DNA of 64,000 nucleotides from the NCBI RefSeq assembly GCF_014217565.1, contig NZ_CP043661.1, forward strand, positions 8,060,001-8,124,000, in the 5' to 3' direction. Below are positions 7,793 through 36,826 of this stretch, one piece after another (the first letter of the stretch is position 1; every line of letters begins with the position of its first letter). A program made the translations under genes and the position numbers. The notes beneath the pieces are model-generated. The model had not been told where the DNA came from. It did no database searches and saw only the letters and a program-made list of their open reading frames with translations. This DNA is from Kribbella qitaiheensis. Lineage in GTDB: Bacteria > Actinomycetota > Actinomycetes > Propionibacteriales > Kribbellaceae.

Positions 7793-8714
7793 CGGTTACA
7801 GGGACACCTATGACGGTCAGGTCGGCTTCATCGACAGCATCTACTACGCGACTGTCACGCTGACCACGACCGGGTACGGCGACATCACTCCGGTGACGCC
7901 CACTGCCCGGCTGGTGAACGCCTTCGTCGTCACGCCGCTGCGGATCTCCTTCCTGGTGGTGCTGGTCGGTACGACCCTGGAAGTCTTGGCGAACGAAGGT
8001 CGCCGCGTCATGCGCGACACTCGATGGAGGAAGCGCATGAAGGACCACGTCGTTGTCGTCGGCTACGGGACCAAGGGCCGCTCGGCGGTGCAAACCCTGC
8101 TCAGCAACGGGGTGCAGCGGGAGAAGATCGTCGTGATCGATCCGCGCGCCACGGCGATCGGGGACGCGGGCAACGATCGGATGGCAGCCTTCCACGGCGA
8201 CGCGACGAACCGGACCGTACTGCGCAGGGCCGAGGTCGTGACAGCTCGCGAGGTGATCGTGACGACGGATCGCGACGACTCGGCCGTGCTCGTCACACTG
8301 GCGGTCCGGCAGCTCAACCCGAAGGCGCACATCGTCGTTGCCGTCCGCGAGGAGGACAACGTGCCGCTGCTGCGGCAGAGCGGCGCGGACGCCGTGGTCA
8401 CTTCGTCCGAGGCGGTCGGCCGGCTGCTCGGTCTGTCCGCGGTCAGCCCGAACCTCGGCGAGGTGATGGAGGACCTGCTCACGTACGGCGAGGGCCTGGA
8501 GGTCGCCGAGCGTCCGGTGCTCGGCCGCGAGGTCGGCAAGGCGCCTGCGTCGGTGCCGGACCGTGTGGTCTCCGTCGTCCGCGACGGCAAGGTCCACCGG
8601 TACTACGAGTCGTCCGTCTCCGTGCTGGCAGCGGGTGACAAGCTCATCGTCGTCCGCCCCGCCAAGGAGACCCCCTGGGCCGAGCGCCCAGGCGCCGACG
8701 ACCAGGAAGAGTAA
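7641..8714 (+). CDS. Two-TM potassium channel with RCK/TrkA-N domain
   Basis: From GTG 7641 this is 357 residues: a first membrane helix (about 30-48), pore loop with the potassium filter TTTGYGD (75-81), a second helix, then a cytoplasmic Rossmann RCK domain starting VVVVGYGTKG (about 137-146) and a C-terminal TrkA-C-like part. It is a Kch/MthK-like ligand-gated potassium channel. The start is inferred from protein architecture; it lies 151 nt inside the preceding gene. An upstream in-frame start at 7575 exists but adds an unlikely Arg/Cys-rich leader. A large inverted repeat follows the stop. Confidence 0.85.
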   Translation: MPSLPTGRNPHGLLVNLPASTRSPVVELLRRLMIALGLLILMVLIVLVDRDGYRDTYDGQVGFIDSIYYATVTLTTTGYGDITPVTPTARLVNAFVVTPLRISFLVVLVGTTLEVLANEGRRVMRDTRWRKRMKDHVVVVGYGTKGRSAVQTLLSNGVQREKIVVIDPRATAIGDAGNDRMAAFHGDATNRTVLRRAEVVTAREVIVTTDRDDSAVLVTLAVRQLNPKAHIVVAVREEDNVPLLRQSGADAVVTSSEAVGRLLGLSAVSPNLGEVMEDLLTYGEGLEVAERPVLGREVGKAPASVPDRVVSVVRDGKVHRYYESSVSVLAAGDKLIVVRPAKETPWAERPGADDQEE

Positions 8715-8734
8715 CGCCCAGAACTGGCGACTTC

Positions 8735-8794
8735 GGACAGCAACTGGGGACCTCGGACAGGAAATGACTTGTCCGAGGTCCCCAGTTGCTGTCC
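8735..8794. repeat. Perfect 25-bp inverted repeat, 10-nt loop
   Basis: Positions 8735-8759 are the exact reverse complement of 8770-8794, separated by 8760-8769. A shorter related copy precedes the left arm (8721-8740 matches 8741-8760 at 17 of 20 bases) and part of another follows the right arm, so the site is built from repeated units of about 20 bp carrying the core CCTCGGACAG. It lies 20 nt after the channel stop and just before the LacI promoter. It could be a dispersed REP-like element or a strong hairpin terminator; there is no T-tract. Confidence 0.85.
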
Positions 8795-8828
8795 GAGGTC
8801 CCGGGAACTCCACCTCCGAACCAGCTTG

Positions 8829-8877
8829 TTGACTGGTCTGGCGCGCTGTTTTATGGTGTGCTCTGTAAACGATTACA
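8829..8877 (+). promoter_or_regulatory. Promoter with LacI-type operator for the ADP-ribosylglycohydrolase operon
   Basis: TTGACT (8829-8834) and TATGGT (8852-8857) are spaced 17 bp, close to consensus. The expected start of transcription falls on TGTAAACGATTACA (8864-8877), a near-palindromic LacI-family operator with CG at its centre; a second half-site ACGATTACA follows at 8881-8889, merging with the ribosome site of the regulator. A repressor bound here would block both the promoter and its own translation start region, which points to autoregulation of the whole operon. Confidence 0.75.
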
Positions 8878-8899
8878 AGAACGATTACAGGAGGTCGGC

Positions 8900-9907
8900 G
8901 TGAGTCGTCCGACGATTGCTGGAGTTGCCCGGGCGGCCGGGGTTTCGGTGGCGTCGGTGTCGCGCGTGCTGAACGGGCTGCCGGCCACCGTGGAGATGGT
9001 GGAGCGGGTTCAGCGGGCCGTCGAGCAGCTCGGCTACGTGCCGGATGCGCGAGCCCGGTCGCTGAAGGTCGGCCGGACGTTCCAGCTCACGCTGGCCGTC
9101 GCCGATGTCGGTAACCCGGTCTACGTGACGATGATGCGGGCGGTCGAGGAAGTGGTCTCCGCCGCCGGATACCGGCTGGTCGTGACCACCACCGGGCCCG
9201 ATGTCGTCGACGAGGTCGCGCTGGTGCGGGGGATGGCCCGTGGGTACGCCGACGGCCTGGTGATCAGCCCGCTGCGCGTCGACGACGACCTGATCAAGTC
9301 GATCCGCGAGTGCGACGTACCGGTGGTTGTCGCCGGTAATGTTCCGGCGAGCGCGGGCGTCGACACGATCCGGGCGAACTCGCCCAAGGGGATGCTGCTC
9401 GCGGTCGAACACCTGCTGCAGAAGGGCCGCCGCCGGATCGCGTTCGTGAACGGTCCGGTCGACACTGTTCCCGGCGCGGCCCGGGCGAAGGGTTTCGCCG
9501 AGGCGATGAAGGCGAACGGGTTGCGATCGGTGGCCGAGGTCGAGGCGATCGACTTCACCTTCGCGGCCGGTCGCGAGGCGGCTCGCGAGCTGTTGTCCGG
9601 GCTGCCGAGAGGCGCTTCCGGGCGCCCCGATGCGGTGATCGCCGCCAACGACCTGCTGGCTGTCGGGCTGATGCACGAACTCGCCGCCGACGGCCTCGAA
9701 GTACCGAAGGATGTCGCTGTGGTCGGGATGGACGACAGTGAGCTTGCCGAGCAGTCGTTCCCACCGCTGACGAGCGTGAACCTCGGTTCCGCCGAACGAG
9801 GGCGGCGGGCCGCGGAGTTGCTGCTGGCAAGGATCGAGGACGACACCCGCACCCCGCGGCGAATCGTCGTCCAGCCGACGCTCAGCGTGCGGAGGTCAAC
9901 CCCTTGA
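8900..9907 (+). CDS. LacI-family transcriptional regulator
   Basis: This 335-residue regulator has an N-terminal LacI helix-turn-helix (TIAGVARAAGVSVASVSRVLNG) and a periplasmic-binding-protein-like sugar-sensing domain. GTG 8900 is chosen because CAGGAGG lies 7-8 nt upstream and the HTH begins immediately after it; the frame is open further up but only through promoter sequence. It is the first gene of the sugar operon, lies behind its own operator, and its stop overlaps the next start (TTGA). It probably represses the importer and catabolic genes until the imported sugar or a derivative binds. Confidence 0.92.
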   Translation: MSRPTIAGVARAAGVSVASVSRVLNGLPATVEMVERVQRAVEQLGYVPDARARSLKVGRTFQLTLAVADVGNPVYVTMMRAVEEVVSAAGYRLVVTTTGPDVVDEVALVRGMARGYADGLVISPLRVDDDLIKSIRECDVPVVVAGNVPASAGVDTIRANSPKGMLLAVEHLLQKGRRRIAFVNGPVDTVPGAARAKGFAEAMKANGLRSVAEVEAIDFTFAAGREAARELLSGLPRGASGRPDAVIAANDLLAVGLMHELAADGLEVPKDVAVVGMDDSELAEQSFPPLTSVNLGSAERGRRAAELLLARIEDDTRTPRRIVVQPTLSVRRSTP

Positions 9908-10797
9908 GCACCGTGACAACCGGCAGGCCGAAGCAGAACAGGGAGGCCATCTTCCTGTTCCTGCCCGCGCTGCTGCCGATCTTGTTGTTCAGCGTCTACC
10001 CGCTGCTGCGTGGTCTGGCGCTCGGTTTCACCAACGCCCGCGCCGGCCTGCACGTCGATACCCACTTCATCGGCTTCGGCAACTTCTCCAAGCTGCTGCA
10101 CAACGACCTGTTCTGGTCGTCGTTCAAGATCGGCTTGATCTGGACCTTGTCGGTCACGATCCTGCAGTTCGTCGCCGCGCTCGGCCTGGCCCTGCTGCTC
10201 AACACGAACATTCGCTTCCGCGGCGTCGCCCGCACCCTCGCGTTGATCCCGTGGGCGATGCCGCCGGTGGTCGTCGCGATCATGTGGCGGTTGCTGCTGC
10301 ATCCGACCAACGGCCCGGTCAACGAGATCCTGCAGAACCTGCATCTGACCGATCACCCGATCAACTTCCTCGGCGACTTCAGTACCGCGCTGCCGGCGGT
10401 GATCGTGGTCGGGATCTGGGTCGGCATGCCGATGACCACGGTGACCTTGCTCGCCGGTCTGCAGGGCATCGACCGAACCCTGTACGAAGCGGCGGCGGTG
10501 GACGGCGCGAGCGCGTGGCGCCAGTTCTGGAACATCACCCTGCCGCAACTGCGGACCGTGATCGTGGCGATCACCAGCCTCGACATGATCTGGAACTTCA
10601 ACTCGTTCGGCCTGGTTTACGTGCTGACCGCCGGCGGGCCGGGTGGCAAGACGATGCTGCCGATGCTGTTCGCCTACAACGAGGCGTTCCGGTACGGGAA
10701 CTTCGGGATGGCCGCCGCGATGGGTGACGTGATGGTCGTGATCATCATCGTGTTCCTCGCCTTCTATCTCCGCAACCGGCTGAGGAGTGAGGCATGA
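9904..10797 (+). CDS. ABC sugar transporter permease (MalF-like)
   Basis: This 297-residue permease has about six membrane helices and the binding-protein-dependent transport signature EAAAVDGASAWRQFWNITLP near residues 198-217, which docks on the ATPase. It begins with TTG overlapping the LacI stop, with an alternative GTG at 9913. With the next two genes it forms a CUT1-type oligosaccharide or glycoside importer. No ATPase gene is present in the operon, so a shared MsiK-like ATPase elsewhere in the genome is likely, as in streptomycetes. Confidence 0.92.
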   Translation: MSTVTTGRPKQNREAIFLFLPALLPILLFSVYPLLRGLALGFTNARAGLHVDTHFIGFGNFSKLLHNDLFWSSFKIGLIWTLSVTILQFVAALGLALLLNTNIRFRGVARTLALIPWAMPPVVVAIMWRLLLHPTNGPVNEILQNLHLTDHPINFLGDFSTALPAVIVVGIWVGMPMTTVTLLAGLQGIDRTLYEAAAVDGASAWRQFWNITLPQLRTVIVAITSLDMIWNFNSFGLVYVLTAGGPGGKTMLPMLFAYNEAFRYGNFGMAAAMGDVMVVIIIVFLAFYLRNRLRSEA

Positions 10798-11627
10798 GGA
10801 CCAGGCCGGCGACCCGGGCCGCGCAGTACGTGGCCGTCGTTTGTTACTTGATCTTCCTCGGGTTCCCGCTGCTCTGGCTGATCTCGAGTTCGCTCAAGTC
10901 GCCGCAGGAGTTCGCGAGCATCGACCCGTCGTTCCTGCCCAAGCATCCGGACTTCTCCAACTTCACCGATGCCCTGGAGGAGCAGGGGCTGGTCCGGTCG
11001 ATGCTGAACTCCCTGCAGATCTCGGTCGCGTCGACGGTGCTGGTGCTGATCGTGTCGCTGCCGGTGGCGTACGCGCTGGCCAGGTTCCGCAGCCGGCTGC
11101 GGCCGATCACGAACGGGTGGATCCTGGTCAGCCAGGTGTTCCCGGTGATCCTGATCGTGATCCCGCTGTTCATGATCCTGCGGCCGCTGCACCTGACGAA
11201 CACGATCCCCGGTGTGGTGATCGTCTACACGGTCTGGTCGATGCCGTTCGCCCTGTGGATGCTGCAGGGGTACGTCGCCGCCGTACCGCGTGAGCTCGAG
11301 GAAGCCGCCTCCGTCGACGGCGCGAGCCGGGTCCGAACCATCGTGTCGATCGTGATGCCGTTGCTGCGGCCGGGGCTGATCGCGACGGCGATGTTCACCT
11401 TCATCTCGGCGTGGAACGAGTTCTTCTTCGCCCTGGTCCTGTTGCAGGACCCCCAACTCAAGACGCTGCCGCTGGTGCTCGCCCGCTTCGTCGGTGCCGA
11501 GGGCCAGGTCCAGTTCGGACCCCTCGCGGCCGCGTCCGTCCTGGCCACCGTGCCGAGCCTTGTGTTCTTTGCCTTCCTTCAGCGCCGGTTGACTTCCGGC
11601 CTGTTGAGCGGCGCAGTCAAGGGTTAG
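10794..11627 (+). CDS. ABC sugar transporter permease (MalG-like)
   Basis: The second importer permease has 277 residues, six predicted helices and the EAA loop EEAASVDGASRVRTIVSIVMP. The ATG overlaps the previous stop by 4 bp (ATGA), with GAGG just upstream. It pairs with the MalF-like subunit to form the membrane channel. Confidence 0.93.
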   Translation: MRTRPATRAAQYVAVVCYLIFLGFPLLWLISSSLKSPQEFASIDPSFLPKHPDFSNFTDALEEQGLVRSMLNSLQISVASTVLVLIVSLPVAYALARFRSRLRPITNGWILVSQVFPVILIVIPLFMILRPLHLTNTIPGVVIVYTVWSMPFALWMLQGYVAAVPRELEEAASVDGASRVRTIVSIVMPLLRPGLIATAMFTFISAWNEFFFALVLLQDPQLKTLPLVLARFVGAEGQVQFGPLAAASVLATVPSLVFFAFLQRRLTSGLLSGAVKG

Positions 11628-11648
11628 AGATCCCCTGAGGAGATGCAG

Positions 11649-12935
11649 ATGAAGAAAGTACTGACCGCGCTGCTGGCGGCGAGCGCCCTGGTGACGCTTG
11701 CTGCCTGTGGTGGCAACGACGACAACGGCTCCGGCTCCGGTGATTCGGGGTCGACCGAGAAGGTGACGCTGAAGTTCCAGAGCCTCGCCTTCCAGAAGAC
11801 CACCGTTGCCGCGAGCAAGAAGATCGTCGCGGACTGGAACGCGGCCAACCCGAACATCCAGGTCGAGTACGTCCAGGGCAGCTGGGACTCGGTACACGAC
11901 CAGCTGGTCACCCAGTTCCAGGGCGGCACCGCGCCGGACATCATCCATGACGAGTCGGCCGACATCACCGGTTTCGCCAACCAGGGCTACCTTGCCGACC
12001 TTTCGCCGTACCTGAGTCAGGAGACGAAGGACGCCGTACCGCAAGGTGTCTGGGACAGCGTCTCGAGCGACGGCAAGACCTTCGCGGCGCCGACGCTGCT
12101 CCAGTCGTACGTCGTGTTCGGCAACACCGCGCTGCTCAAGCAGGCCGGGATCACGACCACCGGCGACTCGCTGAGCTGGGACGACCTGCAGGCGGATGCC
12201 AAGAAGCTCACGGCCGGCGGTAAGTACGGACTCGGCTGGGGACTGAAGAGCCCGACCGCGACCGTGCTGAACCTCGGGATGAACTTCGACGCGGCGTTCT
12301 TCGACGGCACCGGCCGCGACGCCAAGGCGAAGGTCGGCGATCCCGAGCTCGAGGTGCCGAAGCGGATCCACGCGATGGCGTACACGGACAAGTCGATCGA
12401 TCCGACGTCGCTGACGCAGAGCGCTTCCGACGTCCTGCCGGGATTCTTCGGCGGCAAGTACGGAATGATTGTTGCCGGCAACTACGTGGCTCAGCAGATC
12501 GTCGAGCAGGGCCCGAAGAGCTTCCAGTGGGAGGTGCTGCCGCCGCTGAAGGGGACTTCGGAGAAGCAGGCCGCGAACCCGCAGACGCTGTCGGTACCGG
12601 CCGAGGGTAAGCACGTGAAGCAGGCGGCGCAGTTCATCGACTACTTCATGAAGGCCGACAACCTCGCCGCGGTCGGCCAGGGTGACTGGCTGATCCCGAC
12701 CACACAGGCGGCCCGCGACGCGATCGCCAAGACGACCGGCGGCAAGAACGGCTGGACCCAGACGCTGGCCAGTGGCACTGAGCTGACCAAGGCGCCGTTC
12801 CAGAGCGTGGAGAACTACCCGAAGTGGAAGGACCAGATCGCCACCCCGGCCCTGCAGTCGTTCCTGGCCAACAAGATCGATCTGACGACGCTGGGCAAGA
12901 AGCTGTCGGACGGGTGGGGACAGGTCAACGGCTGA
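11649..12935 (+). CDS. Extracellular sugar-binding lipoprotein (CUT1 family)
   Basis: This is a 428-residue solute-binding protein. The leader MKKVLTALLAASALVTLAAC carries a lipobox, so the mature protein is tethered through Cys20 and followed by a Gly/Asp/Ser-rich linker. The body matches family 1 extracellular solute-binding proteins (VLPGFFGGKYGMIVAGNYVA). ATG 11649 is preferred over ATG 11643 because GAGGAG (11637-11642) is 6 nt away. It captures the substrate for the two permeases; the next gene starts on the last base of its stop codon (TGATG). Confidence 0.92.
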   Translation: MKKVLTALLAASALVTLAACGGNDDNGSGSGDSGSTEKVTLKFQSLAFQKTTVAASKKIVADWNAANPNIQVEYVQGSWDSVHDQLVTQFQGGTAPDIIHDESADITGFANQGYLADLSPYLSQETKDAVPQGVWDSVSSDGKTFAAPTLLQSYVVFGNTALLKQAGITTTGDSLSWDDLQADAKKLTAGGKYGLGWGLKSPTATVLNLGMNFDAAFFDGTGRDAKAKVGDPELEVPKRIHAMAYTDKSIDPTSLTQSASDVLPGFFGGKYGMIVAGNYVAQQIVEQGPKSFQWEVLPPLKGTSEKQAANPQTLSVPAEGKHVKQAAQFIDYFMKADNLAAVGQGDWLIPTTQAARDAIAKTTGGKNGWTQTLASGTELTKAPFQSVENYPKWKDQIATPALQSFLANKIDLTTLGKKLSDGWGQVNG

Positions 12936-14086
12936 TGCCTGAAAAGACCAGCACAGTGCTCGAAGACAAGTCGGTAGGTGCCCTCGTCGGCTCGGCGGTC
13001 GGTGACGCGATCGGTGGCGCCGTCGAGGGCTGGACCCCCGAGGCGATCCGGGAACGGCACGGCGGCTGGGTGACCGGCATCGTCGGTCCCTGGTACGAAG
13101 ACTGGCGCAACGCACGGCCGATCGCGCCGTACCACAAGGGCGACGGGCACATCACCGACGACACGTTGATGACGCACGCGCTGGTCGAGGTGTACGACGA
13201 ACGCCGCGAGCACCTGGACGCGTACGCGATCGCCGAGTCGCTGGTGCCGAAGCTGCAAACCGGGAAGCGCTGGATCCCCGAGCTGGAGACCGACGCCCTG
13301 TTGCTGCAGCGGATCTTCCTCGCGGAGAAATGGCTGGTGGCCCGGTTGCACTACGGCCACAACGACCCGCGTGAGGCCGGCGTCGGCAACATCGTGAACT
13401 GCGGTGCGGCGATGTATGTGGCGCCGGTCGGGATCGCCAACGCCGGTGATCCCGCCGGGGCGTACGCCGAAGCGATCGATCTGGCCGGGGCGCATCAGTC
13501 CAGCTATGGACGGGAGGCGGCCGGGGTGTTCGCGGCCGCGGTCGCGGCGGCAATGATGCCTGAGGCAACAGCTGCGTCGGCGGTCGCCGAGGCGCTCGCG
13601 CTGGCCAAGGACGGCACCAGGGCCGCGGTCGCGGCCGTTGTCGAGGCGGCCGATGGCGTGACGGAATGGGAGCAGGCGATTCCCCTGTTGCGTCAGGCGA
13701 TCGAGCCGTACGACACGGTTGGTCCCGACTATCGCAATCAATCGCTTGATGCGCGGCGGCCGAGCCGGACCAAGGCCATCGAGGAGTTGCCGGTCGCGCT
13801 GGGGTTCGTCCTCGTGTCGGGTGGCGATGTGCGGCAGGCTGTGCTCGGCGGCACGAACTACGGCCGGGATGCCGACTCGATCGCGTCGATGGCCGGAGCG
13901 ATCACGGGTGCCTTGGGCGGAGCGGCCGGCGTACCGGGGGACTGGGCGTCGACGATCGCCGAGGCGAGCCGGACGGATCTGGAGCTGCCGGGACGGGTGA
14001 TGGCGTCGGTCGCGACAGAACTGTACGAGTCCGACGCGCGCCGCTGGTCGCGTCGCAGTGAAACGTTGGAGAGAATTAGTCGATGA
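12935..14086 (+). CDS. ADP-ribosylglycohydrolase-family protein 1
   Basis: This 383-residue DraG/ARH-fold enzyme starts with the glycine-rich segment GSAVGDAIGGAVEG. The two metal-binding motifs are intact: T-D-D-T at 74-77 and D312-x-D314-S in GRDADSIAS, which together bind two magnesium ions in ADP-ribosylhydrolases. Family members cleave N- or O-glycosidic bonds of ADP-ribose, and many actinobacterial homologues sit in sugar operons with unproven substrates. Here it is coupled to an importer (TGATG) and to a paralogue (ATGA), so hydrolysis of an imported ribosyl-type glycoside is more plausible than reversal of protein ADP-ribosylation. Confidence 0.88.
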   Translation: MPEKTSTVLEDKSVGALVGSAVGDAIGGAVEGWTPEAIRERHGGWVTGIVGPWYEDWRNARPIAPYHKGDGHITDDTLMTHALVEVYDERREHLDAYAIAESLVPKLQTGKRWIPELETDALLLQRIFLAEKWLVARLHYGHNDPREAGVGNIVNCGAAMYVAPVGIANAGDPAGAYAEAIDLAGAHQSSYGREAAGVFAAAVAAAMMPEATAASAVAEALALAKDGTRAAVAAVVEAADGVTEWEQAIPLLRQAIEPYDTVGPDYRNQSLDARRPSRTKAIEELPVALGFVLVSGGDVRQAVLGGTNYGRDADSIASMAGAITGALGGAAGVPGDWASTIAEASRTDLELPGRVMASVATELYESDARRWSRRSETLERISR

Positions 14087-15384
14087 GACTGACCTGGGTG
14101 CAGCCGGAAGATCTGCTGCCGCACCAGCTCGTCCAGTCCCGCGCCGAAGGCGTTGACGTCACCGACGTCGAGACCCGCTGGCAAGGAGCCGGCGGTACGG
14201 CGACCGCCCCGGTCTCGGGCGCCTCGGACAAGCCTGCGGGAGCCGAGCTGCGGGCGCTCGCGCGGGAGTTGCTGGCCGAGCTGGACACGCACATACCCGA
14301 GTGGGCGGCTCCGGCCATCCCGCAGCTACCAGTACTTGGTGCCGCGTCGGATGGGCGCGTGCTGAATGCCTGGTTGGGGCGGGCTGCTGGGAACTTGCTG
14401 GGGAAGCCGGTGGAGAAAATTCCCCGGGAGGGGATCCGGGAGATTCTTCAGAGTTCGGGTCAGTGGCCGTTGGCGCGGTACGTGAGTGCGGTCGGGGTAC
14501 CGGACGACGTACAGGCCCGCTGGCCGTGGAACCGGCGGTCAAAGCCGACCAGCCTGCGTGAGGTGATCGACGGGATGCCGGAGGACGACGATCTCAACTT
14601 CGCGATCCTGGCGCTGCAGTTGGTCGAGAAGCATGGCGATGACCTGACGACCGAGGATGTCGCACAGGCCTGGCTCAATGATCTGCCGGCCGGGCGCGTG
14701 TTCACCGCCGAGCGGGTGGCGTATCGCAACCTGCTGGACGGCGTCGACCCACTGCGCGCGGCAACGATCAGGAATCCGTTCCGGGAGTGGATCGGTGCGC
14801 AGATCCGGACCGATGTCTACGGGTGGGTGCACCCCGGCGATCGGACGGCCGCGGCGCGACTCGCGTTGACCGATGCGCGGCTGAGCCACACGGGTGCCGG
14901 CGTGGACGGTGCCATCTGGGTAGCCGCGATGTCGGCGGCCGCGATGGTGCTCGACGACCCACGCGAGGTCGCACTGGCCGGGCTGGAGGCGGTTGCTCCA
15001 GATGGTGAGATCGCTCGCGCCGTCCGGTTCGGGTTGGCCCTTGCCGATGATCAACTGGACGACGCGCTGGACCGGCTGCACGCGGAGTACGGGCACCTGC
15101 ACTGGGTGCATTCGGTCAACAACAGCGCGCTCACGGCGTACGCGTTGACGGCCCCCGATTTCGGCACCGGCATCAGCCGGGCGGTGATGGGTGGCTGGGA
15201 CACGGACTCGGCCGGCGCGACTGCCGGTGCGGTACTTGGCGCGGTGCTCGGGGTTCCGGCAGAGTGGTCCGGTCCCCTGGACGACCGGCTGGCCACCAGC
15301 CTGCCCGGAATGAACCAGATCGCGATCAGCGAGCTGGCGGCACGAACTGTGGAGGCGGCATCAATTGTGGGCCAGCGTGGCTGA
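14083..15384 (+). CDS. ADP-ribosylglycohydrolase-family protein 2
   Basis: The second family member has 433 residues, with about 80 extra N-terminal residues before the core (AWLGRAAGNLLGKPVEK). The metal motifs are a variant E-D-D-D at 167-170 and D373-x-D375-S in GWDTDSAGAT. It overlaps paralogue 1 by 4 bp and the kinase gene by 20 bp. The two proteins diverge strongly, so they probably act on different bonds or substrates rather than being a recent duplication, or they could form a heteromer. Confidence 0.87.
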   Translation: MRLTWVQPEDLLPHQLVQSRAEGVDVTDVETRWQGAGGTATAPVSGASDKPAGAELRALARELLAELDTHIPEWAAPAIPQLPVLGAASDGRVLNAWLGRAAGNLLGKPVEKIPREGIREILQSSGQWPLARYVSAVGVPDDVQARWPWNRRSKPTSLREVIDGMPEDDDLNFAILALQLVEKHGDDLTTEDVAQAWLNDLPAGRVFTAERVAYRNLLDGVDPLRAATIRNPFREWIGAQIRTDVYGWVHPGDRTAAARLALTDARLSHTGAGVDGAIWVAAMSAAAMVLDDPREVALAGLEAVAPDGEIARAVRFGLALADDQLDDALDRLHAEYGHLHWVHSVNNSALTAYALTAPDFGTGISRAVMGGWDTDSAGATAGAVLGAVLGVPAEWSGPLDDRLATSLPGMNQIAISELAARTVEAASIVGQRG

Positions 15385-16261
15385 CGTCGTAGTCGTGGGA
15401 AGCGCGAACGTGGACCTGGTACTCCCGGTCCAGCGGATCCCACGACCGGGCGAGACCGTTCTCGCGAGCGGTCTGACCCGCGGTCCTGGCGGCAAGGGCG
15501 CGAACCAGGCGGTGGCCGCTGCCCGGGCCGGAGCGTCGACCGCCTTCGTCGCCTCGCTCGGAGCGGACGAGTCCGGCGAGTTGTTGCGCACGGCCCTCAG
15601 CGAGTCGGGCGTCGACCTCTCGCTGGTGTCGACCACCGGTACGCCGACCGGTACGGCGATCATCACGGTCGCGGCCGACGGGGAGAACTCGATCGTCGTC
15701 GCGCCGTCGGCCAACGCCGAGCTCAAGCTCTCCGCCGAAGCGCTGGACGCCATCCGGTCGGCCAAGGTGGTGCTGTCCCAACTGGAGATCCCGTTCGGGA
15801 CCGTCCAGGCAGCGGCCGAGGCGAGTTCGTACTTCATCCTGAACGCGGCGCCGGCGGCGGAGCTGTCCGACGAGCTGCTCGCGCGGGTGGACCTGCTGGT
15901 GGTGAACGAGACCGAGGCCGAGGCGGTCGGCGGGTCGTTGCTCGAACGCGTGGCCGCCGCGGTGGTCACGCTCGGGGCCGAGGGCGCGGTGATCCTCAGC
16001 CGAGGTGCGGACGAGATCCGGGTGCCCGGCGTACTGGTCGAGGTGGTCGACACGACTGCCGCGGGCGACACCTTCTGCGGCGTGCTGGCGGCTACATTAG
16101 CTGCTTCGTCAGGGACCGGCCCGATTACAGGACGCGACCTGACGAATGCGGTCCGACGCGCTAACGTTGCTGCTTCATTGAGCGTTAAAACGGCGGGAGC
16201 GATCCCATCGGTGCCGCACGGGGAAGCCATCGACGCGCGTTTCGCGGAGGTATACCTGTGA
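15365..16261 (+). CDS. PfkB-family sugar kinase (ribokinase-like)
   Basis: This 298-residue kinase has the substrate motif GGKGANQ (42-48) and the C-terminal PfkB signature DTTAAGDTF near 230-238 with the catalytic Asp. The family phosphorylates ribose, fructose, nucleosides and similar sugars. TTG 15365 is supported by GGAGG 9 nt upstream; GTG 15377 is an alternative without a site. It likely phosphorylates the sugar released by the two hydrolases. Ribokinase similarity would fit a ribosyl substrate, but PfkB specificity cannot be read reliably from these motifs. Confidence 0.9.
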   Translation: MWASVADVVVVGSANVDLVLPVQRIPRPGETVLASGLTRGPGGKGANQAVAAARAGASTAFVASLGADESGELLRTALSESGVDLSLVSTTGTPTGTAIITVAADGENSIVVAPSANAELKLSAEALDAIRSAKVVLSQLEIPFGTVQAAAEASSYFILNAAPAAELSDELLARVDLLVVNETEAEAVGGSLLERVAAAVVTLGAEGAVILSRGADEIRVPGVLVEVVDTTAAGDTFCGVLAATLAASSGTGPITGRDLTNAVRRANVAASLSVKTAGAIPSVPHGEAIDARFAEVYL

Positions 16262-18243
16262 ACCCTCTCGTGCCCCGGCCGATCGACCTCCCGGCCAAGG
16301 TCGACCTCGGCCTGCGGGCGGATCTCGCCTTCCTCGACGACGGCAAGATCCTCGGTGCCCCCGAGGACCCGTCCGACCTGCCCCGCTGGCGCGGCAAGCT
16401 CGCCGAGTGGCTGATGGGCGCCTACGACCGGACCCCGTACGACGGGTCGCACTACGAGGTGCCCGGTCGGGAGTGGACCCAGACGGCGTACTCCGTCGCG
16501 CTGGTCTGGCTGTGGGACGAGCAGCTGTACGACGTGCGGTCGGGCAGATTCACCCCGGAGAAGTTCGTCCGGTGCGGGATCGAAGACTTCGGCGGGTACG
16601 ACGCGGTGGTGCTGTGGCACGCCTACCCGGTGATCGGGATCGACTCCCGCAACCAGTTCGACTTCTACCGTGACGTTCCCGGTCTGCGGGAACTGGTGGC
16701 CTCGTTGCACCAGCATGGACTGAAGGTGTTCCTCGACTACAACCCGTGGGATGTCGGGACGCGGCGGATGGCCCGCTCCGACGCGGACGAATTCGCTGCC
16801 CTGGTTGCCGAACTGGATGCCGACGGCGTCTTCCTGGACACGTTGAAGGAAGGCGATCCGGCCTTCACCCGGGCACTGCAGAAGGTGAAGCCGGCGGTCG
16901 CGTTCGAGGGCGAGTCGCGGTTGCCGATGGCAAGGATCGGCGATCACGCGCTGTCCTGGGCGCAGTGGTTCGCCGACACCCGGGCGCCCGGCGTACTGCG
17001 GGCGCATCTGTTCGAACGCCGGCACATGATGCATCACACCCGCCGGTGGAACCGCGACCACAGCGACGAGTTGCAGTCGGCCTGGGTGAACGGCGTCGGC
17101 ATGCTCGTCTGGGAGTCCGTGTTCTCCGCGTGGGTCGGCTGGAACGCCCGCGACCGGGCGACGCTGCGCCGGATGGTCGCGGCGCAGAGAGCGTTCTCCC
17201 CGATTCTCATCAACGGTGACTGGATCCCGTTGACGCCGGAGATCCCGGACAAGGCCCGTGAGCACGGGGTGTTCGGCTCCCGGTTCGAGCTGGCCGACGT
17301 CACCTTCTGGACCTTGATCAACCGTGACGACGAGGACTTCGACGGCATCGTCCTGCGCTCGGAGGATCAGGTCGGCGACTGGTACGACGTGACGTCAGGC
17401 GTGCCGATCACGGCGGACGACGACGGTGTGCATCTGGTCGTGCCGGGGCGGGGTGTCACCGGCATCGTCCGGGTCGGCGCGACGGCCGGATCGACCTGTC
17501 GCGCGACCGCTCGCCGGCTCGGGACGATGTCCCGGCCGCACGTCGACGACTCCGCGTTCCCGATGGCGCCTGCTGCGCGGGTGGCCGTTCCCGAGGTGTC
17601 TGGCGCTGACATCGGACCGGTTGTCGAGGTGCCGGCGGGGGAGCGCGTTCTGACGGTCCGGCACCGCCGCCGCGAGACCGGGCTGTACGACGAGGCGCCG
17701 TACGTGGAGGAGTGGAAGCCGCTGCCGCCACGCCTGCACGACCAGCAGACGGTGACGCGGGAGATCGCGCTCTCCGGGATCTCTGTGGCGATCCGGGAGG
17801 TGACGAACGCGGAGTACGCGGAGTTCCTCGGCGCGACCGGCTACCGGCCGTTCATCGCCAACCGGTTCCTGGCGCACTGGGTTGATGGCGCTCCTGTGCC
17901 GGGGACCGAGGACCAGCCGGTCACCTATGTGGATCTGCCGGATGCGCGCGCGTACGCCGAGTGGCGTGGCGGGCGGCTGCCGACCGAGGACGAGTGGCAG
18001 GTCGCTGCCGGGCTGGACGGGTTCACCCGCGCGGAGCCGCAGGTGTGGAACCTGACCGAGAGCGAGCACAGCGACGGACGCAGCCGGTTCTGCATCCTCA
18101 AGGGTGGTTCCTGGTTCGTTGCCGAGGGCTCCGACTGGTACGCCGACGGTGGGCCGCAGGAGCCGGAAGTGAGCTTCAAGCTGGTGCTCACCGGCGGTGG
18201 ACTGGACCGCTCGGAGACGATCGGCTTCCGGTGCGCGGGGTGA
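16258..18243 (+). CDS. Glycosidase-like TIM-barrel protein fused to SUMF1/FGE-like domain
   Basis: This 661-residue protein has no signal peptide. Residues 1-370 resemble a (beta/alpha)8 glycosidase, with LKVFLDYNPWD, DGVFLDT (Asp194) and AFEGES (Glu217/219) as candidate catalytic strands. After a beta-rich linker, about residues 500-661 form a SUMF1/FGE-sulfatase-type fold (ISVAIREVTNAEYAEFLGATG to ETIGFRCAG). The Cys pair that makes formylglycine in true FGE is absent: GGSWFVAEG replaces the usual Cys-containing segment. The SUMF1 part is therefore probably a binding or structural module. The GTG overlaps the kinase stop (GTGA). Confidence 0.75.
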   Translation: MNPLVPRPIDLPAKVDLGLRADLAFLDDGKILGAPEDPSDLPRWRGKLAEWLMGAYDRTPYDGSHYEVPGREWTQTAYSVALVWLWDEQLYDVRSGRFTPEKFVRCGIEDFGGYDAVVLWHAYPVIGIDSRNQFDFYRDVPGLRELVASLHQHGLKVFLDYNPWDVGTRRMARSDADEFAALVAELDADGVFLDTLKEGDPAFTRALQKVKPAVAFEGESRLPMARIGDHALSWAQWFADTRAPGVLRAHLFERRHMMHHTRRWNRDHSDELQSAWVNGVGMLVWESVFSAWVGWNARDRATLRRMVAAQRAFSPILINGDWIPLTPEIPDKAREHGVFGSRFELADVTFWTLINRDDEDFDGIVLRSEDQVGDWYDVTSGVPITADDDGVHLVVPGRGVTGIVRVGATAGSTCRATARRLGTMSRPHVDDSAFPMAPAARVAVPEVSGADIGPVVEVPAGERVLTVRHRRRETGLYDEAPYVEEWKPLPPRLHDQQTVTREIALSGISVAIREVTNAEYAEFLGATGYRPFIANRFLAHWVDGAPVPGTEDQPVTYVDLPDARAYAEWRGGRLPTEDEWQVAAGLDGFTRAEPQVWNLTESEHSDGRSRFCILKGGSWFVAEGSDWYADGGPQEPEVSFKLVLTGGGLDRSETIGFRCAG

Positions 18244-18265
18244 GATCAATGATCAGATGTGCCCG

Positions 18266-19453
18266 ATGAGACCCGCGCCTCTGCAGGGGGTGAAGGTGCT
18301 GGAGGCGGCGACGCTGTTCGCGGGACCGCTGGCGGCGACCTTCCTGGGTGACTTCGGTGCGGACGTGACGAAGATCGAGCACCCGGCCAGGCCCGATGCC
18401 GCTCGTGGTCACGGCACCAGCAAGAACGGGATCGGTCTCTGGTTCAAGACCCTCGGCCGGAACAAGCGACTGGCGACGCTCGATCTGTCCCAGGGCCGCG
18501 AGGTCTTCCTCGACCTGGTCCGCGCGAACGACGTGCTGGTGGAGAACTTCCGCCCCGGCACGCTGGAGCGTTGGGGACTCGGGCCCGACGTACTGCTCGA
18601 GGCCAACCCACGTCTGGTGATCGCGCGAGTGACCGCGTTCGGTCAGGTCGGCCCTTGGTCGAACCGCCCAGGCTTTGGTTCCTTGGCCGAGGCGATGAGC
18701 GGATTCGCCGCTGTCACCGGTGAGGCGGACGGGCCGCCGACCCTGCCGCCGTTCGGGCTCGCCGACGGGATCACCGCCCTGGCGACCGCGTACGCCGTAC
18801 TGGTGGCGCTGCGCGAGCGGGATCGGTCGGGCGCCGGCCAGGTGATCGACATGGCCATCATCGAGCCGATCCTGATGATGCTCGGCGGCGGCATCACGGC
18901 GTACCAGCAGACCGGGTATGTCCAGCCCCGGTTGGGGAATCGCTCGTCGAACAACGCGCCGCGCAACGTCTACCGCACCGGCGACGGTAGTTGGGTCGCC
19001 GTCTCGACCAGCTCGCAGAGCATCGCCGAGCGGGTGGTGACGCTGGTCGGCCGGGCCGATCTGGTCGCGCAGCCCTGGTTCGGAACGGGCCGGGAGCGGG
19101 CGGAGCATGCCGATGAGTTGGACGAGGCTGTCGGTTCCTGGATCGGGGCGCGCTCTCTGGACGAGGTCATGCTCGCGTTCGAGAAGGCGGAGGCGGCGGT
19201 CGCACCGGTGCACGACATCCGCGGGATCGTGAGCGACCCGCAGTACCTGGCGCTGAACACGATCGTCGAGGTGGACGATGCGGAGCTCGGTGGTCCGGTG
19301 CAGATGCAGAACGTGCTCTTCCGGCTCTCGGAATCGCCCGGCTCGATCCGGTGGGCCGGCCGTCCGCACGGCTCGGACACCGAAGACGTGCTGGCCGAGA
19401 TCGGTGTCACCCCGGAACAACTAGCGGCACTCCGGGAACGCGGCGTGGTCTAG
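18266..19453 (+). CDS. CaiB/BaiF family (class III) CoA-transferase
   Basis: This protein of about 395 residues has the family N-terminus (PLQGVKVLEAATLFAGPLAA) and features such as ADVTKIE and GFGSLAEAMSGFAAVTGE. The family moves CoA between carboxylic acids, or racemises acyl-CoAs. It begins 22 nt after the previous gene; ATG 18257 would add three residues, and neither start has a clear ribosome site. With the CitE-like lyase downstream it suggests activation of a hydroxy-dicarboxylate, as in malyl-CoA or citramalyl-CoA pathways, followed by cleavage. No hydratase is encoded between them. The stop codon TAG lies inside the end of the MITE-like element. Confidence 0.87.
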   Translation: MRPAPLQGVKVLEAATLFAGPLAATFLGDFGADVTKIEHPARPDAARGHGTSKNGIGLWFKTLGRNKRLATLDLSQGREVFLDLVRANDVLVENFRPGTLERWGLGPDVLLEANPRLVIARVTAFGQVGPWSNRPGFGSLAEAMSGFAAVTGEADGPPTLPPFGLADGITALATAYAVLVALRERDRSGAGQVIDMAIIEPILMMLGGGITAYQQTGYVQPRLGNRSSNNAPRNVYRTGDGSWVAVSTSSQSIAERVVTLVGRADLVAQPWFGTGRERAEHADELDEAVGSWIGARSLDEVMLAFEKAEAAVAPVHDIRGIVSDPQYLALNTIVEVDDAELGGPVQMQNVLFRLSESPGSIRWAGRPHGSDTEDVLAEIGVTPEQLAALRERGVV

Positions 19454-19617
19454 TGTCCCCCGCCCGACGTTCCTTGGCGCTTGCGACGCCCAGGCGTGCA
19501 CCTCACGGCACTGGAGAAGCATCCACGATGCTCCGCATCGAGGACGCCTCTCCAGCACCGCGATGCACGCACCTGACCACCGCAATCACTCAAGCAACCT
19601 CGGACGGGGGACACTAG
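19450..19617. mobile_element. MITE-like element, 168-bp imperfect palindrome with CTAG ends
   Basis: The termini (27 nt each, 24 identical) are inverted copies beginning CTAGTGTCCCCCG. The similarity continues inwards, so the left half pairs imperfectly with the right half over nearly the whole element, and many mismatches are G:U-compatible in RNA. Both ends are CTAG, the target preferred by IS630-type transposons, which duplicate TA. There is no coding capacity. It separates a CoA-transferase stop from a lyase start that would otherwise be almost adjacent (TAG/GTG), and its right end supplies the GGGGGA ribosome site of the lyase. A non-autonomous IS630-type MITE fits best; a structured regulatory RNA is the alternative. 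Confidence 0.72.
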
Positions 19618-20436
19618 GTGCTCACCGCCCTCTACGTCCCCGCGAACAGGCCGGATCGGTTCGCGAAAGCTGTTGCTGCAGGCCCCGATCTGGTGGTGTT
19701 CGACCTGGAGGACGCCGTACCGGTCGACGACAAGGCTGCTGCGAGGAGCTGGGCGGTGGCCTGGGTCGCGGCGCGTTCGGGCGGCTCGTTCGAAGTACGG
19801 GTGAATGCGCCGGGGACGCCGTGGATCGACGATGACCTGGCGGCGCTGTCCGCGGTACCGGCGGTCCGGATCCGGTTGCCGAAGGTGGAGAGCGCTCTCG
19901 ACGTACGCCGGGTGCTGGATCAGGTGCCGACGGCAAGGATCACCGCGCTGATCGAGTCGCCGCTCGGGCTGGAACGGGCGTTCGAGATCGCGACGGCGGA
20001 TCCGCGGGTGGTCGCGGTCGCGCTGGGGGAGGCCGATCTGGCGAGCTCGCTCGGTGTCGATGGTCCGGAGGGGCTCGCGTGGGCGCGTGGCCGGCTGGTG
20101 TCCGCGTCGCGTGCGGCGGGGTTGGGAGCGCCGATGCTGTCGGTGTATCCGCACGTGAAGGACGAGGAAGGGCTGCGGCGGACCTGTCTTGAAGGCCGGG
20201 CGCTGGGGTTCGTGGGGCGTACCGCGATCCATCCGCGGCAACTGGTGCCTATCGTCGAGAGTTTCACCCCGTCGGCGACCCAGATGGCCGATGCGGCCAC
20301 GCTGCTGGCCGCGGTGGAGAAGGCGGGGGTCGCGGACGGCGGTGTGATCGTGCTGCCCGACGGCCGGATGGTCGACCCGGCGATGCTCGGCCGCGCCCGC
20401 GAGATCGTCGACCTGATGCGCCAGATCGAGAACTGA
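19618..20436 (+). CDS. CitE-like HpcH/HpaI aldolase (beta-hydroxyacyl-CoA lyase)
   Basis: This 272-residue protein of the citrate-lyase beta/malyl-CoA lyase family shows LYVPANRPDRF, VVFDLEDAVP (metal-binding Glu/Asp), RVNAPGTPW, ALIESPLGLERA and GFVGRTAIHPRQL. Free-standing CitE-like enzymes split malyl-, citramalyl- or methylmalyl-CoA into acetyl-CoA or propionyl-CoA plus a keto acid. Pairing with the CaiB CoA-transferase supports such a reaction. The GTG directly follows the MITE-like element, whose GGGGGA serves as ribosome site with 6-nt spacing. It is the last gene of the operon. Confidence 0.88.
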   Translation: MLTALYVPANRPDRFAKAVAAGPDLVVFDLEDAVPVDDKAAARSWAVAWVAARSGGSFEVRVNAPGTPWIDDDLAALSAVPAVRIRLPKVESALDVRRVLDQVPTARITALIESPLGLERAFEIATADPRVVAVALGEADLASSLGVDGPEGLAWARGRLVSASRAAGLGAPMLSVYPHVKDEEGLRRTCLEGRALGFVGRTAIHPRQLVPIVESFTPSATQMADAATLLAAVEKAGVADGGVIVLPDGRMVDPAMLGRAREIVDLMRQIEN

Positions 20437-20549
20437 CCTCCCTCTACGACCGTTCCCGCAACAACAGCGGTGCCTGGCACAACGTGAAGACCTGCGGAAA
20501 CCAGGCGAACCTCCGCGCTCACCGGGAGAGAAACCGGGAGCAGACGAGC

Positions 20550-20555
20550 TAGGCT
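20550..20555 (+). promoter_or_regulatory. Leaderless -10 box (TAGGCT) for the CrtI-like gene
   Basis: TAGGCT lies 7 nt before ATG 20563 and no ribosome site is present, matching the actinobacterial leaderless pattern. The 20437-20562 gap otherwise holds only a short direct repeat (ACCGGGAGAG / ACCGGGAG). No -35 box is obvious. Confidence 0.45.
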
Positions 20556-20562
20556 CGGTTCC

Positions 20563-26846: not shown

Positions 26847-26982
26847 CCGGGAGATGCAGCAGCCGACGGCGCGGTACCCGGGGGTGTTGCAGGCGAGGGC
26901 GGTGCTGGGCGTGGGGTCACAGGACATTCCTGTGCCAGGGGCCCAGCACCCGCAATGACCTCGCGGTGAACTGGCTGTGTAC

Positions 26983-28179: not shown

Positions 28180-28235
28180 GAACCAAGGCAATCACGCAAT
28201 TTTCGATCGCACAATGCATGGAACCATATTATTAT

Positions 28236-28255
28236 GCGTATTACGCTGCTACGGT
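28236..28255 (+). promoter_or_regulatory. Conserved operator/-10 module, copy 1 (beta-helix operon)
   Basis: The palindrome GCGTATTACGC (28236-28246) is followed by TG and one more base, then TACGGT (28250-28255). The same palindrome and TACGGT with identical 14-bp offset occur upstream of the ABC-importer operon at 37052-37071, and similarity continues for about 20 bp after it (ATGCAYC, AGCA). The linked IclR protein is the likely binder. A GCACAATGCA element at about 28209-28218 resembles one upstream of copy 2. Confidence 0.68.
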
Positions 28256-28320
28256 ACTCGTCATGCACCAGCAGTCCACGTGCTGGGGTAGCCCACTTCA
28301 CCGCAACTCCTGGGAGAGTC

Positions 28321-29901: not shown

Positions 29902-29940
29902 GCACGGCCCAGCAGAGCACTGGTTACAGAGGAGAGTCAC

Positions 29941-32715: not shown

Positions 32716-32718
32716 GTC

Positions 32719-33397: not shown

Positions 33398-33437
33398 GCG
33401 TCGACCAGCAGCTTCTGCACGCAGTACTGATCACTCG

Positions 33438-34496: not shown

Positions 34497-34539
34497 TCAC
34501 TACGGCGAGACCAGCGCCTCGACGTCCATCACCCCAGGA

Positions 34540-36821: not shown

Positions 36822-36826
36822 GGCGA

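What the first reader, a model, noticed from the sequence alone, without database searches (positions are those of the whole stretch)
8829..20436. Candidate undescribed catabolic operon built around two ADP-ribosylglycohydrolase-family enzymes
Seen: nine tightly spaced genes behind one LacI promoter/operator: regulator, three importer subunits, two hydrolases with intact metal motifs, PfkB kinase, glycosidase/SUMF1-like fusion, CaiB CoA-transferase and CitE-like lyase, most joined by 1-20 bp overlaps. Known: ARH-fold enzymes cleave ribosyl bonds, PfkB enzymes phosphorylate sugars, and CaiB plus CitE activate and cleave hydroxy acids. Inferred: import and dismantling of a ribosyl- or other N/O-glycosylated compound carrying an organic acid. 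This combination is not one I know as a characterised pathway.
Basis: partly seen in the sequence, partly recalled or inferred. Interest (0 to 1): 0.85.

Follow-up and report, generated by a model that had tools for sequence, protein, structure and literature searches.

The report
Conserved ARH-based sugar-acid catabolic operon
A ten-gene bacterial operon, kept in nearly the same order in many actinobacteria and in a reduced form on plasmids of root-associated bacteria, probably imports and dismantles an unknown sugar-containing compound with enzymes whose relatives are known for removing ADP-ribose from proteins.

Summary
Ten genes (not nine), 8900-20436, follow one promoter-like site and a LacI-type palindrome: LacI, two CUT1 permeases, binding protein, two ARH/DraG-fold hydrolases, ribokinase-like PfkB, GH-fold/SUMF1-like fusion, CaiB, CitE. 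Six of nine junctions overlap; the 164-nt CaiB-CitE gap is a repeat insertion. One Ensifer and one Sinorhizobium plasmid carry LacI-ABC-ARH-ARH-UgpC-CaiB-CitE. Putative Streptomyces loci carry four ARH genes+kinase+CaiB+CitE; by synteny probably S. coelicolor SCO2028-2031, in print uncharacterised ADP-ribosyl-hydrolase homologues. Model: a riboside-like glycoside is imported and hydrolysed by the ARHs (and GH-fold protein); PfkB traps the pentose; CaiB/CitE activate and cleave a malate/citramalate-type acid. One catabolic unit: well supported; ribosyl: moderately; the acid: weakly. No activity or transcript shown; inserted genes split the cluster in some relatives. No title or abstract start listed by ten literature searches describes it. 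New variant of a known kind.

The parts
8829..8857 (+). sigma-70-like promoter match TTGACT-17-TATGGT
   Evidence: only promoter-like match in 8600-20700; sequence
8864..8877 (.). LacI-type operator palindrome TGTAAACGATTACA at the expected transcription start
   Evidence: single site in genome; in 10 of 10 Kribbella-type loci with upstream DNA; binding not tested
8900..9907 (+). LacI-family regulator
   Evidence: Pfam LacI + Peripla_BP_3, scanned from 8894
9904..10797 (+). CUT1 ABC permease (MalF/UgpA-like)
   Evidence: PF00528, NCBIfam best hit UgpA
10794..11627 (+). CUT1 ABC permease (MalG/GlcU-like)
   Evidence: PF00528, NCBIfam
11643..12935 (+). extracellular solute-binding protein with lipoprotein-like N-terminus
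   Evidence: PF01547; matched solved structures are sugar-type ABC binders
12935..14086 (+). ARH1: ADP-ribosylglycohydrolase-fold hydrolase, canonical metal motifs
   Evidence: PF03747 162.7 bits, scanned from 12932; motifs invariant in 132 rows
14083..15384 (+). ARH2: divergent ARH-fold hydrolase, EDDD and GWDTDS motifs, ~90-aa N-terminal extension
   Evidence: PF03747 155.3 bits at residues 96-391; DDD and DxDS invariant in 127 rows
15365..16261 (+). PfkB kinase, ribokinase-like
   Evidence: PF00294; TIGR02152 243.6 bits, below cut-off 299.65; alignment to E. coli ribokinase
16258..18243 (+). GHF: GH-fold (TIM barrel plus beta domain) fused to FGE/SUMF1-like domain
   Evidence: PF03781 at residues 495-588; N-domain without Pfam family; fold
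18257..19453 (+). CaiB-type CoA-transferase family III
   Evidence: PF02515 377 bits
19450..19617 (.). MITE-like insertion: 160-bp element with TGTCCCCCG terminal inverted repeats between two CTAG copies
   Evidence: not in the 20 relatives compared; 28 match rows in the genome; ends
19618..20436 (+). CitE-like lyase (HpcH/HpaI family)
   Evidence: PF03328; best NCBIfam RipC_Ccl 163.3 bits, below cut-off 375

Best explanation
A LacI-repressed catabolic operon. A binding-protein-dependent CUT1 importer (ATPase supplied from elsewhere) takes up a small glycoside or pseudo-disaccharide. Inside, the two metal-dependent ARH-fold enzymes hydrolyse its glycosidic bond(s), most likely a furanosidic, ribosyl-type bond, assisted by the GH-fold/SUMF1-like protein acting on another glycosidic bond. 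The released pentose is phosphorylated by the ribokinase-like PfkB. The released hydroxy-acid is activated by CaiB with CoA from a donor such as succinyl-CoA, and CitE cleaves the acyl-CoA in a retro-Claisen step to acetyl-CoA plus a 2-oxo acid (glyoxylate if malate, pyruvate if citramalate). Shown: gene content, order, conservation, motifs. Inferred: every reaction and the repression. My odds for the parts: one catabolic unit 0.9; ARHs are its small-molecule hydrolases 0.75; ribosyl-type sugar 0.5; malate/citramalate-type acid 0.35.
For: Ten-gene order kept in 67 of 80 named loci, one of the 67 with a second LacI, inserted genes disregarded. ARH1 in 62 of 394 class genomes, including all 20 with a GHF hit; in one of these (G249) the GHF hit is a paralogue on another contig (hypergeometric 4.5e-18, or 2.9e-17 without the window genome, not corrected for relatedness). 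CaiB+CitE in the same cluster in 36 of 39 class-sample ARH1 loci examined, although this genome has only 3 CaiB-family and 4 over-cut-off HpcH/HpaI genes. Similar sets in other phyla: LacI-perm-perm-SBP-ARH1-ARHlong-UgpC-CaiB-CitE on an Ensifer and a Sinorhizobium plasmid; ribokinase beside ARH genes in Agrobacterium and Deinococcus. Protein distances of nine of the genes correlate over 40 loci, r 0.77-0.97. Ribokinase-type residues kept. ARH2 relatives beside Bmp-type binding proteins.
Against: No substrate, activity or transcript known. The kinase misses the ribokinase equivalog cut-off (243.6 of 299.65), CitE that of RipC (163.3 of 375), CaiB all equivalog cut-offs. CUT1 importers usually carry oligosaccharides, not nucleosides (recalled). 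PfkB was not found in 6 of the 80 named loci besides those cut short (L098, L111, L122, L125, L143, L146). CaiB+CitE are absent from L207, L208, L111 and from 5 of 7 plasmid loci with ARH1. The parts can be separated: K. antibiotica and K. sandramycini keep only PfkB-GHF in the stretch, as do 2 of 20 genus loci (one of them the same contig). In 10 of the 20 Kribbella-type named loci that have both ARH genes, about 2.5 kb separates ARH1 from ARH2; in the one annotated (L056) it holds two antisense genes, so there the set is not one simple transcript. About 2 kb separates GHF from CaiB in L144, L148 and L150.
Confidence: 0.5

Rival explanations
1. Same operon logic, but the sugar is not ribose and the acid comes from the sugar or from another part: e.g. 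another furanoside, or an alpha-glycoside of a hydroxy acid such as glucosaminyl-malate, with the GH-fold protein as main glycosidase.
For: GH-fold protein with conserved acids D194, E217, E219 and a GH13/GH30-like fold; kinase below the ribokinase cut-off; CUT1 importer typical of di/oligosaccharides (recalled); PfkB missing in some loci.
Against: GHF is not found in the Streptomyces-type and rhizobial loci while ARH1 stays; genes annotated or matched as ribokinases recur next to ARH genes in Agrobacterium, Deinococcus and Mycolicibacterium (their scores are also below the TIGR02152 cut-off).
Confidence: 0.25
2. The ARH proteins are genuine ADP-ribosyl hydrolases (protein, nucleic acid or free ADP-ribose adducts) and their place in a sugar operon is secondary.
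For: PF03747 membership and intact metal motifs; the literature lists S. coelicolor SCO2028-2031 as DraG/ARH homologues and putative ADP-ribosyl hydrolases (passages).
Against: SCO2028 and SCO2030 showed no detectable activity on U-alpha-ADPr (passage; one substrate, and the link to our genes rests on synteny); linkage to importer, kinase and CoA enzymes; two to four paralogues side by side.
Confidence: 0.1
3. An ordinary maltose-type (alpha-glucoside) operon in which the ARH, CaiB and CitE genes are bystanders.
For: SBP and permeases are MalEFG-like; GH13-like fold of GHF; PfkB-GHF alone survive in a few Kribbella genomes.
Against: ARH1, CaiB and CitE persist together in loci without GHF, PfkB or adjacent ABC genes; Pfam names no maltose-type enzyme in the operon.
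Confidence: 0.08

Closest known systems
E. coli yegTUV operon (YegT transporter, YegU ARH family, YegV PfkB kinase)
   Same: transporter + ARH-family protein + PfkB-type kinase in one repressed operon of no clear function (passages of PMC10819704)
   Different: predicted nucleoside:H+ symporter, GntR-type repressor, one ARH, no CaiB/CitE or GHF; linked there to glycogen accumulation
S. coelicolor SCO2028-2031 locus
   Same: probably the same module by synteny: Streptomyces-type loci with ARH3-ARH4-ARH1-ARH2-kinase-CaiB-CitE lie next to lgt/dsbA/trpA; SCO2038 is trpX of trpCXBA (start of abstract of PMC5036795)
   Different: in print uncharacterised DraG/ARH homologues (passages); no LacI/ABC genes of our type beside it and no GHF; identity not checked on a named genome
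Bacteroides thetaiotaomicron rus ribose locus (BT2803-2809)
   Same: ribokinase and nucleoside hydrolase and, as I recall, an ARH-family gene in a ribose-scavenging locus (recalled; the passage shows ribokinase, SusCD-type genes and nucleoside hydrolase at BT2804)
   Different: SusCD importer, no CaiB/CitE; not examined here
DraG/ARH ADP-ribosyl hydrolases (PF03747)
   Same: family and metal motifs
   Different: genomic setting is catabolic; ADP-ribosyl activity not known for these members
CaiB + citramalyl/malyl-CoA lyase pathways (itaconate degradation, 3-hydroxypropionate bicycle; pathways recalled)
   Same: class III CoA-transferase followed by CitE-family lyase; RipC is the best NCBIfam hit of CitE
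   Different: scores far below equivalog cut-offs; acid unknown
GH13-type cyclomaltodextrinases
   Same: TIM barrel with beta C-domain; Z 20.2, rmsd 4.0, 343 aligned, 12% id to 1jf5
   Different: no Pfam family credibly matched in 40 members; Foldseek ranks GH30 xylanases as high; no signal peptide seen; fused to FGE-like domain

Membership tests
LacI-regulated CUT1 ABC catabolic operon | LacI regulator with HTH and ligand-binding domain | tested here: met
   PF00356 and PF13377 over cut-off
LacI-regulated CUT1 ABC catabolic operon | two BPD_transp_1 permeases and SBP_bac_1 binding protein | tested here: met
LacI-regulated CUT1 ABC catabolic operon | cognate operator at the promoter | tested here: inconclusive
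   palindrome 8864-8877 conserved in 10 of 10 Kribbella-type loci and single in the genome; 0 of 52 other loci have this pattern in the 260 nt searched; binding not tested
LacI-regulated CUT1 ABC catabolic operon | transport ATPase in the operon (optional feature) | tested here: not met
   none among the ten genes; a shared ATPase is common in actinobacteria (recalled); rhizobial versions carry UgpC
LacI-regulated CUT1 ABC catabolic operon | one transcript | not testable with these tools
   spacing only
ARH/DraG family (PF03747) | domain over gathering score | tested here: met
   162.7 and 155.3 bits, cut-off 26.2
ARH/DraG family (PF03747) | metal-binding motifs (role recalled) | tested here: met
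   invariant in 132 ARH1 rows; in 127 ARH2 rows DDD and DxDS invariant, first GD replaced by GK by my reading
ARH/DraG family (PF03747) | hydrolysis of an ADP-ribosyl bond | not testable with these tools
   no assay; putative Streptomyces counterparts SCO2028/SCO2030 inactive on U-alpha-ADPr
Ribokinase (TIGR02152) | score over equivalog cut-off | tested here: not met
   243.6 vs 299.65; filed only as ribokinase-like PfkB
Ribokinase (TIGR02152) | sugar-site and catalytic residues (E. coli N14, D16, GGKGAN, E143, catalytic D; roles and numbering recalled) | tested here: met
   same residues in the alignment to 1gqt
RipC/Ccl citramalyl-CoA lyase (NF038242) | score over equivalog cut-off | tested here: not met
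   163.3 vs 375
CoA-transferase family III (PF02515) | domain over gathering score | tested here: met
   377.3 bits; substrate unknown
GH13 | fold of the catalytic and C-terminal domains | tested here: inconclusive
   Z about 20 to GH13 enzymes but GH30 ranks as high in Foldseek; no credible Pfam match
Formylglycine-generating enzyme (PF03781) | domain over gathering score | tested here: met
   71.5 vs 23.3
Formylglycine-generating enzyme (PF03781) | active-site cysteine pair (recalled) | tested here: inconclusive
   only one near-invariant Cys (C659, 20 of 21); the profile alignment does not reach the pair

The most novel reading that the evidence does not exclude
ARH-fold enzymes have a large, unrecognised nutritional branch: sets of two to four paralogues act as small-molecule (ribo)furanosidases in a sugar-plus-hydroxy-acid pathway spread over Actinomycetota, Rhizobiales and Deinococcus, and several Streptomyces proteins now counted as candidate ADP-ribosylation erasers belong to it. 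In one branch the pathway recruited a GH-fold family, absent from Pfam, fused to a SUMF1-like domain.
Probability: 0.55. Interest if true: 0.75.

Novelty: new variant of a known kind. Interest (0 to 1): 0.62.

Why it matters
It gives a testable function to ARH-family genes that papers on ADP-ribosylation list as uncharacterised hydrolases, points to a carbon source that many actinobacteria and some rhizobia seem equipped for and that these searches do not name, and offers a conserved enzyme set (ARH1, ARH2, CaiB, CitE, GHF) whose substrate could be found with one binding-protein screen.

Tried and rejected
Chance neighbourhood: rejected. CaiB-CitE as a separate unit because of the 164-nt gap: rejected, since the 20 relatives compared lack this element (one has another 115-nt spacer), the insert is a repeat, and the linkage recurs elsewhere. 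A regulon clue from other operator sites: none, the pattern fits once in the genome; it was not found in the 260 nt upstream of LacI in 52 non-Kribbella loci, whose operators I did not work out. A substrate clue from genes around the operon: clusters of extra ORFs differ by genus (my ORF caller is crude and some calls are wrong frames); the largest, 16 ORFs in 15 of the 58 non-Kribbella named loci, 12 of them after CitE, looks like a secreted alpha/beta-hydrolase by eye in the one sequence read; not interpreted. The PhoD-like and F5/8-C-like genes between ARH1 and ARH2 in L056 lie antisense and were set aside; the gaps in the other Kribbella loci were not annotated. SBP specificity: the matched solved structures are sugar-type binders at E 5.6e-17 or weaker, uninformative on the ligand. 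GHF family: whole-protein model pLDDT 75, N-domain model 84.7; the fold is GH13/GH30-like and names no family. C-terminal part of the 699-aa rhizobial ARH: only a sub-threshold laminin-G hit in 3 of 7 members. Literature, titles and abstract starts of the listings only: searches (0 papers; 2; 20 listed of 57; 13; 3; 0; 15 of 218; 12 of 26; 12 of 67), 111 (12 of 44); none describes this operon; the library holds open-licence papers only, and I opened passages of six papers.


Full report
What is there. The window is bases 8060001-8124000 of an 8.16-Mb, one-contig genome, probably a Kribbella: the best named relative of the fusion protein is K. monticola at 93%. Ten genes run on the + strand from 8900 to 20436: LacI regulator, MalF- and MalG-like permeases, solute-binding protein, ARH1, ARH2, PfkB, a fusion protein that I call GHF, CaiB, CitE. 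Six of nine junctions overlap. A promoter-like pair at 8829-8857 and a palindrome TGTAAACGATTACA at 8864-8877 precede them; the palindrome's pattern fits once in the genome and occurs in all 10 Kribbella-type loci that have sequence upstream of LacI, one of them titled Streptomyces sp. SID13031. No ATPase gene is in the operon. The genome has five PF03747 genes, two of them here.

The gap before CitE. CaiB and CitE are separated by 164 nt. Of 20 Kribbella-type relatives, 10 have the genes abutting, 9 a spacer of 12-37 nt (stop codon included) and one 115 nt. The window's insert begins with TGTCCCCCG and ends with its inverse followed by a second CTAG: a 160-bp element with a CTAG duplication. 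A search of the genome with it gives 28 rows, two of them the element itself on both strands, and seven others near full length at 77-84% identity. So this is a repeat insertion and not a natural end of the operon. It may weaken CitE expression; not tested.

Conservation of the whole. A scan of one genome for each of 84,980 species found 312 stretches that encode relatives of GHF; the best 80 were kept. By tblastn the ten genes lie in this order in 66 of the 80, and in one more with a second LacI; 4 lack only PfkB; 2 lack only LacI, cut off by the stretch; 2 (K. antibiotica, K. sandramycini) have only PfkB-GHF; 5 are shorter, of which four begin at a contig end and L111 (Nocardiopsis coralli) lacks ARH1, PfkB, CaiB and CitE. 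The genera include Amycolatopsis, Cellulomonas, Cellulosimicrobium, Georgenia, Promicromonospora, Micromonospora, Nocardiopsis, Leifsonia, Herbiconiux and Nocardioides. The order disregards inserted genes: about 2.5 kb separates ARH1 from ARH2 in 10 of the 20 Kribbella-type loci that have both, and about 2 kb separates GHF from CaiB in L144, L148 and L150. In L056, the one such gap annotated, two antisense genes lie between ARH1 and ARH2, so there the set is not one simple transcript. Within the genus of the window 25 of 25 genomes have GHF; of the 14 other genomes of the order, 8 have only short hits to its SUMF1 part and 6 none. Of 20 loci fetched from the 24 other genomes of the genus, 18 keep ARH1, ARH2, CaiB and CitE and 2 keep only PfkB-GHF. 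Named and unnamed sets overlap: some are the same contigs. Pairwise protein distances of nine of the genes correlate at r 0.77-0.97 over 40 loci, as expected for common inheritance; shared species history also contributes.

Sampling without choosing for the operon. In 394 Actinomycetes genomes GHF (E<=1e-20) is in 20 and ARH1 (E<=1e-40) in 62, including all 20; in G249 the GHF hit is a 47% paralogue on another contig. Hypergeometric 4.5e-18, not corrected for relatedness. I examined 39 ARH1 loci of this sample, the window included: CaiB and CitE are in the cluster in 36 (in L211 upstream of LacI), absent from L207 and L208, and L206 ends at a contig edge. The other 23 of the 62 were not fetched. 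This genome holds only 3 CaiB-family genes and 4 over-cut-off HpcH/HpaI genes, so such linkage is not expected by chance.

Variants. (a) Many loci of the unnamed families f23 and f20 have two further ARH genes, ARH3 and ARH4, before ARH1; Nonomuraea gerenzanensis, named, reads ARH3-ARH4-ARH1-ARH2-PfkB without GHF, CaiB or CitE in the stretch. The named Micromonospora loci have no ARH3/ARH4 hit. ARH3 keeps the motifs in nearly all of 33 rows; in ARH4 the second motif G.D.D[TS] was found in 0 of 30, so one metal ligand seems lost. (b) In family f22, which I take to be Streptomyces, seven of eight fetched loci read ARH3-ARH4-ARH1-ARH2-kinase-CaiB-CitE and one lacks a kinase hit; no LacI or ABC genes of our type are in the 20 kb. 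In the four of these loci where flanking genes were scanned, they are VIT1 (L204) and glutamate synthase (L200) on one side and lgt (L200, L202, L218), dsbA-like (L200, L218) and trpA (L200) on the other. S. coelicolor SCO2038 is trpX of trpCXBA (start of abstract) and SCO2028-2031 are ARH homologues (passage), so this is very probably the same locus; I could not check it on a named genome. (c) On rhizobial plasmids ARH1 (43% identical to ours) is followed by a 699-aa ARH protein and UgpC; an Ensifer and a Sinorhizobium plasmid add CaiB (41-43%) and CitE (31%), Agrobacterium adds ribokinase; Phyllobacterium and Nitratireductor show none of these by annotation or tblastn, and Pseudochrobactrum, which also lacks the long ARH, none by annotation, which is incomplete. 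(d) Deinococcus: LacI-perm-perm-SBP-unknown-ARH-ribokinase-ARH; Mycolicibacterium: LacI-ARH-SBP-perm-perm-ribokinase-UgpC. (e) More distant ARH2 relatives sit beside Bmp-type binding proteins in Rhizobium sp. ACO-34A and in the haloarchaeon Halostella, the latter with an inosine-uridine nucleoside hydrolase gene.

The enzymes. ARH1 keeps GD, TDD and DxDS in all 132 aligned rows; ARH2 keeps DDD and DxDS in all 127 and has GK where, by my reading, ARH1 has GD (rows include near-identical genomes). PfkB scores 243.6 against the ribokinase model (cut-off 299.65) and aligns with E. coli ribokinase with the residues that I recall as sugar- and phosphate-site residues unchanged. GHF: residues 495-588 match PF03781. 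The N-terminal 424 residues match no Pfam family credibly in 40 homologues (best E 0.13); modelled from 40 sequences (pLDDT 84.7) they align with GH13 cyclomaltodextrinases (1jf5, Z 20.2, rmsd 4.0, 343 aligned, 12% identity), while Foldseek puts GH30 xylanases and GH13 amylases level. D194, at the end of the fourth barrel strand by my count, and E217/E219, at the end of the fifth, are invariant in the 21 and the 40 aligned homologues, where GH13 enzymes carry nucleophile and acid/base (recalled). So GHF is plausibly an active glycosidase of a family without a Pfam model; activity is not shown. CaiB and CitE carry family domains but score far below every equivalog cut-off shown.

How it most likely works. 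Import; hydrolysis by ARHs and GHF; trapping of the pentose by PfkB; CoA transfer by CaiB; cleavage by CitE to acetyl-CoA and a 2-oxo acid. The ribosyl reading rests on the ARH family (alpha-ribosyl bonds in the characterised members that I recall), the recurring ribokinase-like genes, and the nucleoside-type neighbours of ARH2 relatives. The acid reading rests on CaiB-CitE linkage in two phyla and on the chemistry of CitE-family lyases (recalled: metal-bound 2-oxo acid product). That the kinase and the CaiB-CitE pair are each missing in some loci, and that Agrobacterium has a ribokinase where Ensifer has CaiB-CitE, suggests that the two arms deal with two products of one hydrolysis. This last step is inference.

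What is known. No title or abstract start listed by ten full-text searches (open-licence PubMed Central only; five of the lists capped) describes such an operon. S. coelicolor SCO2028-2031 are listed as uncharacterised DraG/ARH homologues (passages, PMC5087735, which omits SCO2031; PMC9411070), and SCO2028 and SCO2030 had no detectable activity on U-alpha-ADPr (passages, PMC13036486), a single substrate. The yegTUV operon of E. coli has an ARH-family gene and a PfkB-type gene and no clear function (passages, PMC10819704). A ribose-scavenging locus of B. thetaiotaomicron with an ARH-family gene is recalled only.

Verdict. Real, conserved, undescribed as far as these searches reach, and worth a ligand screen. 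It is a new variant of a known kind of operon and not a new kind of system. The substrate is open.

Noticed in passing
window 19450-19617: 160-bp MITE-like element with terminal inverted repeats and CTAG duplication between CaiB and CitE; related copies elsewhere in the genome.
   Followed up: partly
window 8731-8803: 73-bp inverted-repeat sequence just upstream of the promoter; 33 match rows in the genome, several places matched on both strands because it is palindromic.
   Followed up: partly
L056 5521-8208: PhoD-like phosphatase and a protein with an F5/8-type C domain encoded antisense between ARH1 and ARH2 in a Kribbella-type genome; ten named loci have a gap of similar size.
   Followed up: partly
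L062, L074, L093, L095: Kribbella-type loci with only PfkB-GHF between the same flanking genes, the other operon genes not found in the stretch; L074 and L095 seem to be one contig (same length, 205152).
   Followed up: no
L053 7120-12656: GHF paralogue (47% identity) in another setting, beside a GH3 glycosidase and an ORF with sub-cut-off DUF4185/DUF5005 hits.
   Followed up: no
L121 12512-14959 and similar ORFs in 14 other non-Kribbella loci: secreted alpha/beta-hydrolase-like gene shortly after CitE (Georgenia, Cellulosimicrobium, Oerskovia and others); family judged by eye from one sequence.
   Followed up: no
window 26977-42573: separate set with a beta-helix/pectate-lyase-like protein, a DUF4838/GH67N-like protein, a GDSL esterase, another SBP_bac_1 binding protein and an FAD oxidoreductase: looks like a plant-polysaccharide locus.
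   Followed up: no
L168 5939-10398: Enterobacter hormaechei plasmid with LacI, 711-aa ARH protein and SBP between chiP and glnS/nagE genes.
   Followed up: no
L162 469-11478: Subdoligranulum plasmid: two ARH2-like genes with MalF/MalG-like permeases, DUF4127, an aminoglycoside N-acetyltransferase-family protein, a ribokinase-like gene, DUF4434 and an F420-ligase-family protein.
   Followed up: no
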